51,525 nt of DNA from Methylosinus sp. Sm6 (lineage in GTDB: Bacteria > Pseudomonadota > Alphaproteobacteria > Rhizobiales > Beijerinckiaceae), in assembly GCF_019802345.1 (NCBI RefSeq), contig NZ_JAINDZ010000033.1, positions 1-51,525 on the forward strand, given 5' to 3'. The notes below the pieces were generated by a model. That model did not search any database. It worked only from the letters and a program-made list of their open reading frames with translations, and was not told the DNA's origin. This document shows positions 5,742 through 30,635 of the stretch, in pieces (positions within the stretch are counted from its first letter, which is position 1; each line of letters opens with the position of its first letter). Position numbers and translations under genes: made by a program.

Positions 5742-5882
5742 TCGATCCCGGGAACCTACAACGTAGGTGGGCGCCGTAGTGACCGAGCCCACGGGCAAGG
5801 CCAGGGACAGCTCCCTTGGAGATCGATAAGGCCCCGGGGAATTAAAGTCCGACACGCACCCCGCAGCGCCGCTAATACAATG
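5742..5882 (-). ncRNA. ssrS: 6S RNA
   Basis: Read on the minus strand, the region contains hallmark segments of alphaproteobacterial 6S RNA in order: ATTCCCCGGGGCCTTATCG, then CAAGGGAGCTGTCCCTGG (a hairpin), CCTTGCCCGTGGGCTCGGT, CACTACGGCGCCCACCTACG and TTGTAGGTTCCCGGGATC. CCTAC-GTT-GTAGG forms the 3' hairpin. 6S RNA binds the sigma-70 RNA polymerase holoenzyme and mimics an open promoter in stationary phase. It sits upstream of and co-oriented with fau, as in E. coli. Ends are approximate: the 5' end lies somewhere between 5865 and 5890. A short open frame over it (5756-5944, minus) is not a gene. Confidence 0.85.
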
Positions 5883-5962
5883 TAGTCCGACGAGGAAGCG
5901 AGCGCCAGAGGCATTCGATCGCGGAGGCATTCGATCGCGGACATGGGCCGCCCCCTCGGCGG

Positions 5963-6730
5963 CTACGAAGAATTCGACACGACCATCGACGCGAGGCCGC
6001 CGACGAGATGCGCGGAGCCATGCGCGAGGACGGCCGATTCCAAGCCGAAGCGCCAGTAGAGCCAACCGAATGCGAGGCCCGGCGCCAAATTGGCGATCAC
6101 GACCGCGCCGACCAGCCATGCGGGGGGCTGGCCCACCACGCCGTAGAGGACTGGCAAATGCCCTAAGCCGAAGAGAATTGCCGCGACGACGATCGCGGAC
6201 CAGAGGACCCACGGGGCCGGCGCGGCGGGCGCGCCGCTCAGCCGCCAGAGCAGCCAGGCGACGAATGTCATCAGGCCCCATCGGCAGATGATCTCCTCGC
6301 TCAGCCCGCCGTAGAGAATTTTCGTGATCATCGGGGGCGTCACGGCGAGCATGCGCTCCACCTCCGGGCCGTCCAATGAGAGGAAATAGGGCTCGGTGAC
6401 CGCTGCATACCCGGCGAGCAGCAATCCGACGATCGCCGCCACGACGATCGCCGGCCCCGATTGCCGCTGCAGAATCCCCAGCGCCGCCGAGGCGTCGCCT
6501 TGGGCCGCCGCGCGGAGCGCCGGCGCGTCGAGCGAGACGCGCTGCGCGAGCGCGGAGCCGATGAACACCGCCACGATGACGAGAACGCCCGGCTGGATCA
6601 AAGACAATCCGCGGATCGCCATGGGCGGCAGGTTCACATCGGTGGGAGCCAATGTCTCCACAGGCGTCAGCATCAAGGATAGGACGCCGAGAAGTCCGAG
6701 AATCGAGAGAAGAAGAGAAAAAAGCATCAT
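5963..6730 (-). CDS. CPBP family intramembrane metalloprotease
   Basis: A 255-aa multi-pass membrane protein of the CPBP (CAAX protease and bacteriocin-processing, Abi) family. The motifs lie in transmembrane helices: EExxxR as SEEIICRWG (motif 1), FGLGHLP (motif 2) and a downstream HGSAHLV. These Glu and His residues form the glutamate/histidine protease site of the Rce1-like fold. About six to seven hydrophobic segments are seen, starting with MMLFSLLLSILGLLGVLSLM. Bacterial members cleave or protect against peptides or prenylated substrates, but the target here is unknown. It is downstream of the PH-domain gene on the same strand (88-nt gap), so the two may be co-transcribed. Confidence 0.85.
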   Translation of the reverse strand: MMLFSLLLSILGLLGVLSLMLTPVETLAPTDVNLPPMAIRGLSLIQPGVLVIVAVFIGSALAQRVSLDAPALRAAAQGDASAALGILQRQSGPAIVVAAIVGLLLAGYAAVTEPYFLSLDGPEVERMLAVTPPMITKILYGGLSEEIICRWGLMTFVAWLLWRLSGAPAAPAPWVLWSAIVVAAILFGLGHLPVLYGVVGQPPAWLVGAVVIANLAPGLAFGWLYWRFGLESAVLAHGSAHLVGGLASMVVSNSS

Positions 6731-6818
6731 CGCAGCTTTCTGACGGTTTCGCGCGAGCTGAACGCGCCACGATCGCTCGAACGGCCACGGCGGCCGAGGC
6801 GCTTTCGAAGTTGTTCAT

Positions 6819-7340
6819 TCACTCTTCGGAGGCGGCGGAAAGCCGTGCGCGAAGCGCCGTCTCGAAGCTCGCCGGATCGTCGGGGCTAATGAGCAGCTCC
6901 CGGCTGGTCCGCGGCTTGATCAAGACGAGGTTCGACAGATTCGTGGCGTAATAGTCTATAGAATTCTTGAAGGCCGAGGAGCTGTAGACGCCGTAATAGC
7001 CGCCGAACCCGCCCGAGCCGAACACCCGCATCTGCGAGCCCATGTCGCTCGAGGACACGCGTTTCGCAAATTCGATGTCGTGCAGCGCGAGGCGCCGCGG
7101 GCCGATGGCTCGATCGATAACGAGCTCGTCCTCGGTGATGGCGTAGCCGGTCGTCCTGAACAGCCAGCCGACCACGAACAATCCGAAGACGAGGCAGGCC
7201 ACGGTCCATGACCATACGCCGAGGCGGTCTCTGTTGGCATACAAGGTATTCAGCGCGAAAAGGATGCCGAGCGCCGTAACGGTGCTGATGATTCGCGCGA
7301 GATTGTCCAGAGACGCCGGGAAACGCAGGATATCTCCCAT
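6819..7340 (-). CDS. bacterial PH-domain membrane protein
   Basis: A 173-aa protein. Two adjacent hydrophobic helices (about residues 15-34 and 43-62: TVTALGILFALNTLY, WTVACLVFGLFVVGWLF) precede a beta-rich segment (TTGYAITEDELVIDRAIGPRRLALHDI ... LVLIKPRTSRELLISPDDPASFETAL) typical of bacterial pleckstrin-homology-like domains (YIFTHDxLxI and the closing LISPxDPxxF are recognisable). Members are membrane-attached and of mostly unknown role. An AGAGGAAAG ribosome site directly precedes the ATG at 7340. The CPBP protease gene follows on the same strand. Confidence 0.75.
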   Translation of the reverse strand: MGDILRFPASLDNLARIISTVTALGILFALNTLYANRDRLGVWSWTVACLVFGLFVVGWLFRTTGYAITEDELVIDRAIGPRRLALHDIEFAKRVSSSDMGSQMRVFGSGGFGGYYGVYSSSAFKNSIDYYATNLSNLVLIKPRTSRELLISPDDPASFETALRARLSAASEE

Positions 7341-7388
7341 CTTTCCTCTCTATAGACGCCGCGACGCTCCGGCCGCCACATGCTTTCA

Positions 7389-8615
7389 TTACGATCGATT
7401 TTCGCGCCGCCGGCGACTAAAGTTTTCCATTGAATTATCGCCGACCAGCGCCGGTGCGGCGTCGATCATATCATCGTTCTCGATAGGCTCTAAGCTCTCG
7501 AGCAGCGGCGAGGATATGCTGGGCAGCAGCTCGTCGTCAAGGAATCGCGCAAGCAAAAGGTCCGGCACCAGCTCTTGAAAATGCTCCGCTACGACCTTGC
7601 GAACCTTTGGATCGAGATAGGCGCGCAGACAAGCTTGACACTTATGTGCATACGCGTTTTCCCACGCGATGGTCTCGTCCTTCGTAGCCGCCCATTGCAG
7701 TAGCTTCACAGGCCCCATAAATTTCATCCAGATCTTGACATAGTCGTCTTCGGCGACGGCGGTCGCCTCCCGCAGGAAGTCGTCTCCTCGAGCCATGCCG
7801 ACGTTGAGTTCTGCAATCGCCCGTTGACCAAGGCCGCAGCATCCAGCGATAATTCCATCGGGATATAATGTGTAATGACTGAGGACGCTCTCGCAACCCA
7901 TCGAGGCTCCAACGTTGCTCGCATTCAGCGCGCGAGCGGGGTCCATCCCTTCGGATTCGTAGGGGTCGAGAGACATCCAGGGATTTTCTGTGATATTGTC
8001 GGCACGAATGCAATCGGCGCGTATAATTTCAGGGTGCTGAAGCAGTGTCTCTTTGCTGATGAGCTTCTCGGCTCGGGTCTCGACCATGATGTGGACCGTC
8101 AGATTCCGAGCCCTCGAAGCAATAATACCCGCGACGACTCGCTCGATTGGAACATATTTGGCGTGTTCGTCGCCAGTGCTAAAATTGATTTCCGTCAATC
8201 CCGCCCCGACAAGCTGGTCGAGCATTCGGCCCGTCGTTGCTTCCACTGCCCAATGCCCATTGGTGACAAGGCGCGTTGGCATGCCTAGCGACGCCGCATG
8301 GGAAATGGCGCGCAAAAGATTGTCCCAGAGCAGGGTGGCCTCGCCACCCGTGAATACGACGATCTGGAAATTCAGCACCTTCGCTTGGTCGATCGCGTTC
8401 AGCATGACGGAAAGCGGAAGATTGGAAATCTTGCATCGGCCGACGAATGTTCCGCAGTCATTGCAGCGGGCCGTGCAGGCGCTTGTCGGCATGATGGTGA
8501 GAGAGCGGGGATGCGCGTGCTGGACGGAACCGCGCGACTGACCCGCACCCTCGGCCGCAGGAGGCAGGTCTTCGACAAAGTTATCCAGGTCTTCGACAAA
8601 GTTATCTGAGCACAT
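7389..8615 (-). CDS. radical SAM protein, probable peptide/protein-modifying type
   Basis: A 408-aa radical SAM enzyme. Residues 47-54 read CTARCNDC, the CxxxCxxC ligand set of the [4Fe-4S]-SAM cluster, preceded by LTIMPTS (first beta strand). TGGEA at residues 89-93 is the SAM amino-group contact. Extra cysteines at 241, 259, 260, 326 and 329 (GCES, AGCCGLG, HKCQACL) sit where SPASM/twitch proteins bind auxiliary clusters. This suggests an auxiliary Fe-S site, although spacing does not match SPASM exactly. The last 80 residues are acidic and lack known motifs. Residues 4-10 and 11-17 (DNFVEDL twice) come from a 21-bp tandem duplication. It lies 170 nt downstream of the LSNP-motif protein gene on the same strand, in AT-richer DNA. 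Substrate unknown. Confidence 0.85.
   Translation of the reverse strand: MCSDNFVEDLDNFVEDLPPAAEGAGQSRGSVQHAHPRSLTIMPTSACTARCNDCGTFVGRCKISNLPLSVMLNAIDQAKVLNFQIVVFTGGEATLLWDNLLRAISHAASLGMPTRLVTNGHWAVEATTGRMLDQLVGAGLTEINFSTGDEHAKYVPIERVVAGIIASRARNLTVHIMVETRAEKLISKETLLQHPEIIRADCIRADNITENPWMSLDPYESEGMDPARALNASNVGASMGCESVLSHYTLYPDGIIAGCCGLGQRAIAELNVGMARGDDFLREATAVAEDDYVKIWMKFMGPVKLLQWAATKDETIAWENAYAHKCQACLRAYLDPKVRKVVAEHFQELVPDLLLARFLDDELLPSISSPLLESLEPIENDDMIDAAPALVGDNSMENFSRRRRENRS
8566..8607. repeat. 21-bp tandem duplication in the radical SAM gene
   Basis: The 21-bp unit AGGTCTTCGACAAAGTTATC plus one base occurs twice head to tail (8566-8586 and 8587-8607), differing only in the last base. It encodes DNFVEDL twice at the extreme N-terminus of the radical SAM protein, before the catalytic fold. 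Confidence 0.9.
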
Positions 8616-8785
8616 GGTGGTCTTCTTTCAATTCGAATTTCGGATATGAACGTCTGATCGCGCGGCATCTACTCGACGGTACGGAGCGCGGATCGAGTCT
8701 CGACCTCGATCACGGCGCTCCGCGCCGGCACTTTTCGCAGCATCGCGGGAGCCGGCGCGCGACTGCCTCGATGTCGAGCGATGGC

Positions 8786-9664
8786 TTACTGATCGGAAAA
8801 AGTGGCGTGGGGATCAAACAGTTTACCCGACGCCGCGTATTCGCGCGCGTGATGAATGATCTGGTCGGCGATGCCCCGGAAATTCGCCCCGCTGACGCCG
8901 GGCGCGCCAGCGCTGTAGCCGCCGATGTAAGAGTGAGCGTAGAGCCAGGATATCGAAAATATAGCGATGATGGAGTAAGCCAACACAGCTGCGATCGCGA
9001 AGACAGGAAGAACTATGCCGGCAGGCTGGACCCTCGCCGCCCCATCAGGAAGCGCACCTCGGACGTTTTCGGCATAGAAGAGTGCGGCGGCTTCTTCTTT
9101 AGTAAGGTTTGACATCATGCCGCGCGCGAGATCACTGGTGATCGCCGCGCGATCGATGCGGTTTAAAGATAGCGCTCCAGACTTGATCTGCTCATCGATT
9201 TTTTTCGAATATGCTCTGATCCAGTTCACGAACTTCGGATTGCTCAGCAGTGTGAAGGTGAGACGATTCGATTCCGAGATGGCCAGCGATCGAAACGGCG
9301 TCGTCGCCCCCGGCGCGACCGCCGTCATCAGAACCCCGACGGGATTCGAGAGGAACGCGATCCGTAAGGAGTCGTTCGTGCTCATTCGCCTGCCGAGGTC
9401 ACGAAAATGCAGCAAGAGTTCTTCATGTTGCTTCGAAGAAATAGAGACGATCATCGGATGACTCTGATCCGGGGACGGCGCCGACCCGCCCGCCAGCGCT
9501 TTCTCGGAATTCGTCACCAGCGGAAACGCCGCCATTGCCGCGACAGAAGATGTAAGAATAGCTCTGCGTGTTGGTTTCTCTGTGCGTGGACTAGTCTCGC
9601 CGAAGCTCAATCCGTCATTATTAGGACCAACGCTGCTCTTAGCATTGTCACTATCGTCGCTCAT
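8786..9664 (-). CDS. uncharacterised exported/anchored protein with paired LSNP motifs
   Basis: A 292-aa protein not matched to a family by eye. Residues 1-30 are polar; KPTRRAILTSSVAAMAAFPL follows, a Tat-like signal ending near KALAGG. Residues 70-170 hold two similar motifs about 37 residues apart, RIAFLSNPVGVLM and TFTLLSNPKFVNWI, in a helical domain. A hydrophobic segment of about 25 residues (AGIVLPVFAIAAVLAYSIIA) is followed by a Gly/Tyr-rich stretch (SYIGGYSAGAPGVSG) and a polar C-terminus. The start at 9664 has a good GGAGA site (6 nt spacing). The frame extends to 9772 but that part overlaps the upstream gene. It lies one nucleotide after the small putative membrane-protein gene and 170 nt before the radical SAM gene. 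FLSNPVGVL resembles the FLxDPxxVL element of some RiPP leader regions, so it could be the substrate; this is inference. Confidence 0.7.
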   Translation of the reverse strand: MSDDSDNAKSSVGPNNDGLSFGETSPRTEKPTRRAILTSSVAAMAAFPLVTNSEKALAGGSAPSPDQSHPMIVSISSKQHEELLLHFRDLGRRMSTNDSLRIAFLSNPVGVLMTAVAPGATTPFRSLAISESNRLTFTLLSNPKFVNWIRAYSKKIDEQIKSGALSLNRIDRAAITSDLARGMMSNLTKEEAAALFYAENVRGALPDGAARVQPAGIVLPVFAIAAVLAYSIIAIFSISWLYAHSYIGGYSAGAPGVSGANFRGIADQIIHHAREYAASGKLFDPHATFSDQ

Positions 9665-9665
9665 C

Positions 9666-10037
9666 TCATTTCTCCAAAAAATAAATATGCATCCTGCCTT
9701 CCAACGTTTCGGCCAGGTCAGGCAAAGTGGTTTCGGATAGCCAGAAAACGAATCCAGAAATATTCCACGCAACAGCTGTTATGCCAGAAAATACTTCTGT
9801 CGCCGTAGGTTCCGAAGCCGTCCATCGACGTAAAACTAATAGCACTAGGTATAAAATACGGCAACATCTACGAGCTGTAAAAAAGTAATACACAACTATT
9901 GGCTGCGATCGGCTGGCCTCGCATTTGCTTACGTAACTATCCCATTTTTGGTCTTGTGGAAATTCATCGAGTCGCCGGACGATGGTCGTAACTCGCTCGC
10001 GCTTCAGCAACAGGAGAAACGACCAAACCTGTGGCAT
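9666..10037 (-). CDS. hypothetical small membrane protein
   Basis: A 123-aa reading frame in AT-rich DNA, where long frames are not favoured by base composition. Two hydrophobic segments are visible: IVVYYFFTARRCCRILYLVL (about residues 47-66) and a weaker TEVFSGITAVAWNISGFVFW (about residues 80-99). Its TGA stop is followed after one base by the ATG of the LSNP-motif gene, and its last codons carry that gene's ribosome site, which suggests translational coupling. No Shine-Dalgarno is seen before the chosen start at 10037, and no family is recognised. Confidence 0.4.
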   Translation of the reverse strand: MPQVWSFLLLLKRERVTTIVRRLDEFPQDQKWDSYVSKCEASRSQPIVVYYFFTARRCCRILYLVLLVLRRWTASEPTATEVFSGITAVAWNISGFVFWLSETTLPDLAETLEGRMHIYFLEK

Positions 10038-10115
10038 TCAGTCGCATAAAGACGGCCCCTGTCCGGGGAAGGTCGCGACCGCCCCGAAGACGCGGCCAGC
10101 TGCCGCGCTCGGCCC

Positions 10116-30293: not shown

Positions 30294-30635
30294 ATGCAGA
30301 AAGGCCAGGCTCGGGAGCCGTCCGGGCGCGAGGCCGCCAAGCGCGGCTTCGCCGCCATGGACGAGGCCAAGCAGCGCGAGATCGCCCGCAAAGGCGGCGA
30401 AAGCGTTCCCGCGGAGAAACGCAGCTTCTCGAAAGATCACGAACTCGCCGCTCAGGCCGGACGCAAGGGCGGGCAGAGCGTTCCGGCGCAGGAGCGCAGC
30501 TTCTCGAAGGACCGCAATCTCGCCGCCGAAGCGGGACGCGAGGGCGGCAAGAAATCGGGAGGTCCGCACGCCAAGCCCGCCGAAAAGGAAGGCGCGACCG
30601 CAGCGAGAGCCGGCCGCAAGGGCGGCGACAGCTGA
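30294..30635 (+). CDS. KGG-repeat general stress protein
   Basis: A 113-aa very hydrophilic protein with repeated KGG units: ARKGGESVPAEKRSFSKDHE, AGRKGGQSVPAQERSFSKDR, AGREGGKKSGG and a final AGRKGGDS. This is the stress-induced KGG/ConA-like family (as in E. coli YciG and Bacillus GsiB), linked to stationary-phase, desiccation or osmotic stress. A GGGAGAA site lies 5 nt before the ATG. In alphaproteobacteria such genes are often under general stress (EcfG) control, but I did not find a certain promoter. Intrinsically disordered; acts in the cytosol. Confidence 0.88.
   Translation: MQKGQAREPSGREAAKRGFAAMDEAKQREIARKGGESVPAEKRSFSKDHELAAQAGRKGGQSVPAQERSFSKDRNLAAEAGREGGKKSGGPHAKPAEKEGATAARAGRKGGDS

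What the first reader, a model, noticed from the sequence alone, without database searches (positions are those of the whole stretch)
7389..10037. Radical SAM enzyme with a linked LSNP-motif exported protein and a small membrane protein
Three minus-strand genes lie in AT-richer DNA between housekeeping genes. The 123-aa gene ends one base before the 292-aa gene, whose product has a Tat-like signal, a TM segment and two RIAFLSNP/TFTLLSNP motifs. The radical SAM protein has CTARCNDC, TGGEA and extra C-terminal cysteines like SPASM/twitch enzymes. A plausible reading is an enzyme that modifies the exported protein, perhaps at its Gly/Tyr-rich end (SYIGGYSAGAP). FLSNPVGVL is similar in form to FLxDPxxVL leader elements of some ribosomal peptides. 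The pairing, leader likeness and function are inference; no known RiPP class fits by eye.
Basis: partly seen in the sequence, partly recalled or inferred. Interest (0 to 1): 0.75.

Follow-up and report, generated by a model that had tools for sequence, protein, structure and literature searches.

The report
Mobile epimerase and exported precursor cassette
A small gene cassette in a methane-oxidising bacterium pairs an enzyme of the kind that flips amino acids to their mirror-image form with an exported-looking protein that is probably its target, most likely to make a bacteria-killing peptide, and related cassettes turn up in several bacterial phyla and in virus-derived sequences.

Summary
The radical SAM gene (7389-8615) and the 292-aa gene (8786-9664) are real and belong together; the 123-aa "small membrane protein" is not a gene. 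The enzyme is of the EpeE/YydG peptide-epimerase type: EpeE chains take the first nine structural ranks, and its eight cysteines, including the one aligned with EpeE's H-donor Cys223 (here C260), are kept in 52-53 of 53 rows. The 292-aa protein matches no Pfam or NCBIfam family, but homologues lie directly upstream of the enzyme in 17 of 17 sampled members of its clade. It has a Tat-like signal, a conserved helical leader, a variable core (here V/A/I-rich, without cysteine) and a C-terminal helix. PH-domain and CPBP-protease genes follow; close relatives lack the cassette. In sister clades such enzymes often sit beside V/A/I-cored, signal-bearing precursors and PH-domain or SdpI/DUF1648 genes; three of those precursors weakly match the SdpC toxin family. 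Best reading: a mobile cassette that epimerises a protein-sized, exported pro-bacteriocin. Chemistry, export and killing are inferred. Only 2 of 17 clade members show a Tat motif, and 9 of 17 lack a V/A/I-rich core. The literature searches made listed no description.

The parts
5743..10115 (.). Interval between the 5-formyltetrahydrofolate cyclo-ligase and methyltransferase genes that holds the cassette
   Evidence: The matches to the two flanking genes are about 0.3-1.6 kb apart in 7 of 9 other genomes of the genus (far apart in the other 2) and about 4.4 kb apart here; phmmer with the cassette proteins finds nothing in those 7 intervals.
8786..9664 (-). 292-aa precursor protein gene (P0002)
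   Evidence: No Pfam, NCBIfam, PHROGs or PADLOC family. phmmer hits 13 genes, each directly upstream of a related enzyme, E 2e-10 to 5e-3. No cysteine.
9485..9664 (-). Precursor residues 1-60: Tat-like signal (TRRAIL, hydrophobic stretch, ALA-G)
   Evidence: Read from the sequence and by a regular expression only. TatC is present in the genome.
9170..9463 (-). Precursor residues about 68-165: conserved helical leader domain
   Evidence: 17-row alignment A4; helices at 77-162 in the AlphaFold model, pLDDT 54-86 per ten-residue block from residue 81 to 160.
9329..9355 (-). FLSNPVGVL (residues 104-112), leader element F..[DN]P..VL
   Evidence: F and P nearly invariant over 17 rows.
9239..9268 (-). 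NRLTFTLLSN (residues 133-142), second leader element
   Evidence: N133 and L140 nearly invariant over 17 rows.
8930..9022 (-). Precursor residues about 215-245: V/A/I-rich core, proposed target of epimerisation
   Evidence: Most hydrophobic 25-mer at 217-241, 14 of 25 V/A/I; lies between leader and C-terminal helix, where relatives have unrelated sequence. Its being the target is inference.
8789..8899 (-). Precursor residues 256-292: C-terminal follower helix
   Evidence: Helix 260-278 in the model, pLDDT 70-85 per block over 261-280; similar C-terminal stretches in most relatives, judged by eye.
7389..8615 (-). EpeE-type radical SAM enzyme gene (P0001)
   Evidence: Pfam Radical_SAM; best NCBIfam model TIGR04078 YydG but below cut-off; profile hit to 8ai1 at E 2e-23; Foldseek ranks 1-9 are EpeE.
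8454..8477 (-). CTARCNDC, radical SAM cluster cysteines C47, C51, C54
   Evidence: Present in 52 of 53 rows, one gap.
7836..7841 (-). C259-C260; C260 aligns with the proposed H-atom donor Cys223 of EpeE
   Evidence: 53 of 53 rows; alignment to 8ai1, numbering by my count; proposed role of Cys223 from PMC8326336.
7629..7640 (-). C326 and C329, which with C241 and C259 are the likely ligands of the second cluster (inference)
   Evidence: 52 of 53 rows for C326 and C329, one gap; C241 53 of 53.
6819..7340 (-). Membrane protein with bacterial PH domain (bPH_5), proposed immunity protein
   Evidence: Pfam PF10882, 51.5 bits, cut-off 22.5; no match in 9 of 9 other genomes of the genus.
5963..6730 (-). 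Rce1-like/CPBP intramembrane protease, proposed processing or immunity protein
   Evidence: Pfam PF02517, 41.4 bits, cut-off 22.4; no match in 9 of 9 other genomes of the genus.
9666..10037 (-). 123-aa ORF, judged not a gene
   Evidence: Flat codon-position GC; no homologue among ORFs of 51 loci.

Best explanation
This is a horizontally moved cassette that makes an epimerised, exported peptide toxin. The ribosome makes a 292-aa precursor. In the cytoplasm the EpeE-type enzyme P0001 uses the precursor's folded N-terminal leader and C-terminal helix as handles. It abstracts alpha-hydrogens in the V/A/I-rich core (about 215-245) and re-donates hydrogen from C260 on the other face, leaving D-residues. 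The Tat pathway then carries the modified protein across the inner membrane, proteolysis (possibly by the CPBP protease) frees the core, and the core acts on membranes of competing bacteria. The PH-domain membrane protein, and perhaps the CPBP protein, protect the producer. Shown here by computation: the enzyme type, the enzyme-precursor pairing, the precursor architecture and the absence of the cassette from close relatives. Inferred: epimerisation of P0002, which residues, the handles, Tat export, processing, killing and immunity.
For: Enzyme: EpeE chains rank 1-9 against the PDB (E 7e-15 to 3e-13, TM about 0.75 by target; next BlsE 0.50); eight cysteines shared with EpeE in 52-53 of 53 rows; all 22 enzymes scanned, the window's included, match TIGR04078 at E 1e-10 or better. 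Pairing: 17 of 17 sampled clade members with a homologous precursor upstream; Mantel r 0.617; in 398 genomes of the phylum, leader and enzyme profiles meet in G000 and G343. No cysteine in P0002, against thioether chemistry. V/A/I-cored neighbours at 24 of 53 related loci (54 examined) against 5 of 35 control radical SAM loci (38 examined), Fisher p 0.002. Export: TRRAIL here, TRRKFL in Thermus, and KRR..[IL] signals in the ten proteobacterial sister-clade loci where a precursor was read (L012, L027-L029, L031-L034, L038, L128); TatC present. Toxin/immunity: bPH genes in 15 of 53 related loci by my profile plus the window by Pfam, and 0 of 38 control loci, and in 7 of 7 viral-contig loci; SdpI/DUF1648 over cut-off in L011, L016 and L042; weak SdpC-toxin matches in L026, L027 and L040. 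[quoted passage not shown]
Against: No chemistry was observed. P0001 scores 43 bits against the 300-bit TIGR04078 cut-off, so it is not an EpeE equivalog. Only 2 of 17 clade members (window, Thermus) show a Tat-like motif; the other 15 show no such motif by my pattern, and their export is unexplained. Nine of 17 have no V/A/I-rich core but hydrophilic or low-complexity cores (DTGT repeats, Ser-rich and others), so Val/Ile epimerisation cannot be read off as common to all. AlphaFold makes the window's core an ordinary helix, at low confidence, which could be a plain membrane anchor. The window's own precursor does not match SdpC. In its clade a bPH gene was seen only in the window and L025, there on the opposite strand, and a CPBP gene beside the enzyme only in the window and L118 (narrow profiles, some short contigs); 9 of 11 family genomes with a P0005 relative have it away from such an enzyme. 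The bPH and CPBP genes have host-like third-position GC, unlike precursor and enzyme, so the four may not have arrived together. In deeper branches (L036, L039, L043-L050, L052, L054, L119, L120) the V/A/I-core test was negative or found no enzyme ORF; there I did not search systematically for other precursors. The Tat signal was judged by eye and by a regular expression only.
Confidence: 0.55

Rival explanations
1. The enzyme modifies P0002, but the product is a surface-anchored structural or adhesive protein: the hydrophobic segment is a membrane anchor and the low-complexity stretches of relatives are stalks or repeats altered by radical chemistry.
For: DTGT repeats in Duganella, DPGPGP repeats with two 2OG-Fe(II) oxygenases in L025, Pro/Cys repeats in L118, the last two after a V/A/I-rich segment; core predicted as a helix; no transporter among the same-strand cassette genes.
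Against: The core sequence is unrelated between members while the leader is kept, as in peptide natural products; PH-domain, SdpI and CPBP genes are immunity- or processing-type neighbours; compact three-gene cassettes occur in viral contigs.
Confidence: 0.2
2. The enzyme is EpeE-like in fold but does different chemistry on P0002, for example a carbon-carbon or carbon-oxygen cross-link or a desaturation.
For: Fold alone does not fix the reaction; P0001 is far below the EpeE equivalog cut-off.
Against: The cysteine pair that includes the aligned H-donor is kept in 53 of 53 rows; P0002 has no cysteine for a thioether; I saw no conserved aromatic motif in the cores, by eye.
Confidence: 0.15
3. 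The genes are ordinary neighbours with no functional link.
For: A 170-bp gap separates precursor and enzyme here, and codon composition differs between the two gene pairs of the cassette.
Against: 17 of 17 co-occurrence across several phyla and correlated divergence.
Confidence: 0.02

Closest known systems
Epipeptide EPE system (epeXEPAB, formerly yydFGHIJ) of Bacillus subtilis
   Same: Radical SAM epimerase of the same fold with the same eight cysteines including the proposed H-donor; EPE is an antimicrobial that stresses and permeabilises membranes (passages).
   Different: EPE has a short pre-pro-peptide with a 32-residue leader (PMC8326336), a transmembrane peptidase EpeP and an ABC transporter EpeAB for immunity (PMC13343845). 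Here the precursor is 292 aa with a folded leader, an internal core, a follower and a Tat-like signal, and the other same-strand genes are bPH and CPBP.
SDP toxin system (sdpABC-sdpIR)
   Same: In related loci, three precursors weakly match TIGR04032 toxin_SdpC and three loci have SdpI or DUF1648 proteins.
   Different: P0002 itself does not match SdpC, and the sdpABC-sdpIR locus as described in PMC13343845 (passage) has no radical SAM enzyme.
Proteusins (polytheonamide, landornamide) with PoyD-type epimerases
   Same: Long leader and, in many members, a V/A-rich core proposed for epimerisation; the Thermus relative has an alternating xNxN core and loci with what looks by eye like a B12-type radical SAM neighbour exist. 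The likeness to polytheonamide's core and cluster is recalled.
   Different: [quoted passage not shown] P0002 matches no such leader model and its core is internal.
Leaderless bacteriocins (EntDD14, aureocin A53, lacticin Q)
   Same: Membrane PH-domain proteins in gene clusters, with a stated role in immunity and transport (passages of PMC11580447 and PMC7332713).
   Different: Those peptides are active straight after translation and have no leader; the PH domain there is bPH2 where the passages specify it, here bPH_5.

Membership tests
EpeE/YydG radical SAM peptide epimerases | Fold of EpeE with cysteines for two Fe-S clusters | tested here: met
   Foldseek ranks 1-9 EpeE, TM about 0.75 by target; eight cysteines kept. 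Clusters themselves not shown.
EpeE/YydG radical SAM peptide epimerases | H-donor cysteine (Cys223) | tested here: met
   C260 aligns with it in the profile alignment and in the 53-row alignment.
EpeE/YydG radical SAM peptide epimerases | Score over the curated TIGR04078 equivalog cut-off | tested here: not met
   43.4 bits against 300.
EpeE/YydG radical SAM peptide epimerases | L-to-D epimerisation of the substrate | not testable with these tools
   Needs mass spectrometry.
Epipeptide (EPE) system | Short EpeX-like precursor | tested here: not met
   Precursor is 292 aa.
Epipeptide (EPE) system | EpeP peptidase and EpeAB ABC transporter in the operon | tested here: not met
   The other same-strand cassette genes are bPH and CPBP proteins.
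SDP toxin family | Precursor matches TIGR04032 over cut-off | tested here: not met
   P0002 no match; relatives L026, L027 and L040 match at 25.8, 17.3 and 15.6 bits against 99.2.
Proteusins | Nitrile-hydratase-like leader | tested here: not met
   No such family for P0002; two weak leader-model matches among 33 precursors.
Sactipeptides/ranthipeptides | Cysteine donor in the precursor | tested here: not met
   P0002 has no cysteine; 11 of 33 precursors have none.
Tat substrates | Twin-arginine signal with hydrophobic stretch and cleavage site | tested here: inconclusive
   TRRAIL and ALA-G seen, TatC present; no signal predictor or experiment; 15 of 17 clade members lack the motif.
RiPPs in general | Modified core released from a ribosomal precursor | not testable with these tools
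   Architecture fits; the product is unknown.

The most novel reading that the evidence does not exclude
The window is one member of an undescribed, cross-phylum class of protein-sized ribosomal toxins. An EpeE-type enzyme installs many D-residues in an internal core held between a folded leader and a follower helix. Members with Tat-like signals, including the window's, are exported as folded proteins through Tat rather than by a dedicated transporter and are guarded by PH-domain or SdpI-type proteins. V/A/I/N-rich cores with alternating D/L residues may form polytheonamide-like membrane channels, and the cassette travels as a self-contained unit, also on viral contigs.
Probability: 0.33. Interest if true: 0.87.

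Novelty: new variant of a known kind. Interest (0 to 1): 0.7.

Why it matters
If right, EpeE-type epimerases are not confined to small epipeptide precursors. They are the core of a widespread family whose precursors, in the 33 scanned, gave no relevant Pfam or NCBIfam match beyond weak or low-complexity ones, so genome mining that looks for short precursors would miss them. It would join two B. subtilis cannibalism systems, EPE (the enzyme) and SDP (toxin-like precursors and SdpI-type neighbours), in one logic. It would be the first case I know of in which a radical-SAM-modified precursor leaves the cell through Tat. The leader and enzyme profiles make it directly searchable, and a two-gene co-expression makes it testable.

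Tried and rejected
Plasmid search with P0002: none. PHROGs: none; PADLOC gave only weak viperin matches over the radical SAM stretch. The fold search of the P0002 model gave no match at E 0.001 or better. The 123-aa ORF was tested and rejected as a gene. CPBP as a fixed part of the system was considered and downgraded: of 11 family genomes with a P0005 relative, 2 have it beside the enzyme. The ORF L046 1211-3850 entered the precursor profile, probably through low complexity, and is not counted. The leader hit in G209 (E 6e-4, no enzyme at E 1e-30) is treated as likely chance in a search of 398 genomes. L128's N-terminus was shortened in alignment A5, and some precursor starts (L017, L018, L116, L118) were set by me near the leader rather than at a start codon. 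The bPH profile was seeded from loci it was then counted in, so its count is partly circular; P0004 alone by phmmer finds 5 loci, and L027's gene, found by my profile, has no Pfam match. L040 and L041 carry identical enzymes, and several viral and Photorhabdus loci are near copies, so counts are not independent events. L030 ends too soon to show a precursor. The control loci L056-L093 are more distant radical SAM relatives, several on short contigs. The Fisher tests ignore relatedness.
Full report
What is there. On the minus strand between a methyltransferase gene and a 5-formyltetrahydrofolate cyclo-ligase gene (flank names by eye) lie four genes: a 292-aa precursor (8786-9664), a radical SAM enzyme (7389-8615), a membrane protein with a bacterial PH domain (6819-7340) and an Rce1-like/CPBP protease (5963-6730). 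Gaps are 170, 48 and 88 bp. The 123-aa ORF named in the finding shows flat codon-position GC and no homologue in 51 loci and is not counted as a gene. The genome is probably that of a methane oxidiser, by its AMO/pmoA-family gene (inference), and has TatC.

An acquired interval. Matches to the two flanking genes lie about 0.3-1.6 kb apart in 7 of 9 other genomes of the genus, far apart in the other two, and about 4.4 kb apart here. The PH-domain and CPBP genes gave no match in 9 of 9, the enzyme none in the 8 same-genus genomes, and phmmer finds none of the cassette proteins in the 7 fetched intervals. Precursor and enzyme have low third-position GC (0.63, 0.65) against 0.82-0.91 in three flanking genes; the PH-domain and CPBP genes are host-like (0.81, 0.84), so the four may not share one origin.

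The enzyme. Pfam calls it Radical_SAM; its best NCBIfam model is the YydG/EpeE epimerase TIGR04078, at 43 bits far under the 300-bit cut-off. A profile of eight enzymes, the window's included, finds only EpeE sequences (3) in the PDB at E 1e-5 or better. The AlphaFold model (mean pLDDT 82.1) matches EpeE in ranks 1-9, TM about 0.75 by target length, with the next enzyme at 0.50. Eight cysteines (C47, C51, C54, C241, C259, C260, C326, C329) are shared with EpeE in 52-53 of 53 rows, the misses being gaps. C260 aligns with Cys223, proposed as the H-atom donor of EpeE (passage of PMC8326336). All 22 enzymes scanned match TIGR04078 at E 1e-10 or better.

The precursor. P0002 matches nothing in Pfam, NCBIfam, PHROGs or PADLOC. 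By phmmer it matches 13 genes in 51 loci at E 0.01 or better, each just upstream of a related enzyme; an iterated profile adds three more in that clade (L011, L018, L116) and one low-complexity ORF that I do not count. In the enzyme tree the clade with the window has 17 rows, from Cyanobacteriota, Bacteroidota, Bacillota, Actinomycetota, Pseudomonadota and a Thermus plasmid. All 17 carry the precursor. Enzyme and leader distances correlate (Mantel r 0.617, 0 of 10,000). In a separate scan of 398 genomes of the phylum, the leader profile (E 0.001) hit 3 genomes and the enzyme profile (E 1e-30) 3. Both hit G000 and G343, with the leader 0.75 kb before the enzyme in G343. G209 had a weak leader hit only, and G285 an enzyme with a different, Tat-signalled precursor and a PH-domain gene.

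Architecture. An optional signal, then an about 85-residue leader with F..[DN]P..VL and NRLLFSLL[SA]N, a variable core, and a C-terminal helix. A Tat-like motif was found in 2 of 17 clade members, window and Thermus. A V/A/I-rich segment is present in 8 of 17 (window, L010, L016, L021, L023, L024, L025, L118), followed in L025 by DPGPGP repeats with two 2OG-Fe(II) oxygenase genes nearby and in L118 by Pro/Cys repeats. The other 9 have xNxN (Thermus), DTGT-type (Duganella, L117), Ser-rich (L018) or other cores. P0002 has no cysteine, as have 11 of 33 precursors in all, which argues against thioether chemistry here.

Sister clades. Enzymes from Xanthomonas, Luteimonas, Photorhabdus, Eleftheria, Prevotella, Dysgonomonadaceae, Elusimicrobia and lactic acid bacteria lie beside precursors with V/A/I-rich cores. 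The proteobacterial ones read (ten loci) carry KRR..[IL] Tat-like signals; those of L026, L040 and L042 look by eye like Sec or lipoprotein signals. In lactic acid bacteria, ABC transporter genes are annotated nearby on the opposite strand in L013 and L014, and L037 has one by eye. PH-domain genes occur in 15 of 53 related loci by my profile, plus the window, and in 0 of 38 control loci (seeded from the same loci). Pfam puts bPH_5 over cut-off in the window, L025, L026, L038, L040 and L055, below cut-off in L031 and L032, and finds nothing for L027; SdpI or DUF1648 is over cut-off in L011, L016 and L042 and below it in L014. Three precursors weakly match SdpC toxin, the best being L026 at E 8e-6. 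In viral contigs 7 of 7 loci have the PH-domain gene; 6 of 7 showed a precursor ORF by my filter, 5 of these Tat-like, several of them near copies. L148 sits beside what I recognise (recalled, not tested) as P2-like phage tail genes.

How it most likely works. See Best explanation. What is shown: enzyme type, pairing, architecture, absence from relatives. What is inferred: D-residues in the core, Tat export, release, membrane action and immunity. [quoted passage not shown] PMC13343845 (passages) gives the EPE and SDP gene roles.

Against. No biochemistry; below the EpeE cut-off; no Tat motif in 15 of 17 and no V/A/I-rich core in 9 of 17 clade members; a CPBP gene beside the enzyme in 2 loci only; a bPH gene in the window's own clade only here and in L025; V/A/I-core enrichment modest (24 of 53 against 5 of 35) and negative in most deeper branches; counts include near copies.

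Novelty. Ten literature searches in open-licence PMC papers listed no paper whose title or shown abstract describes this family; one search found no paper holding all of radical SAM, Tat signal, RiPP and precursor protein. Listings were capped, I saw passages of five papers only, and subscription papers and preprints were not searched. I rate it a new variant of a known kind (radical SAM epimerised peptides), with a new precursor family and a proposed new export route.

Noticed in passing
window 8565-8606: Perfect 21-bp tandem duplication at the start of the enzyme gene gives DNFVEDLDNFVEDL; the first 31 residues have pLDDT under 50 in the model.
   Followed up: partly
L148 2977-5580 and L149-L154: Viral contigs carry enzyme, signal-bearing precursor and PH-domain gene in a row (precursor ORF seen in 6 of 7, PH-domain gene in 7 of 7), in L148 beside phage tail-like genes by eye.
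   Followed up: partly
L028 6034-9068, L034 6040-9190: Photorhabdus loci with two tandem copies of the Tat-signalled precursor before the PH-domain gene; L027 and L033 have one.
   Followed up: partly
L025 3064-7495: Precursor with DPGPGP repeats next to two 2OG-Fe(II) oxygenase genes, possibly further tailoring of the core.
   Followed up: partly
L118 7131-8216: Relative whose precursor is Pro/Cys-rich with 16 cysteines, unlike the cysteine-free window precursor.
   Followed up: no
L051 3160-4767: Three tandem precursor-like genes before an EpeE-like enzyme and, by eye, ABC transporter genes in Thermogemmatispora.
   Followed up: no
L127 4959-7007, L120 6478-8697: Downstream of EpeE-like enzyme genes, ORFs that look by eye like a B12-type radical SAM enzyme, as in polytheonamide clusters (recalled).
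   Followed up: no
window 30387-30548: 75-bp period repeat, 2.2 copies, 78% matches, inside a 422-aa ORF near a tRNA-Leu.
   Followed up: no
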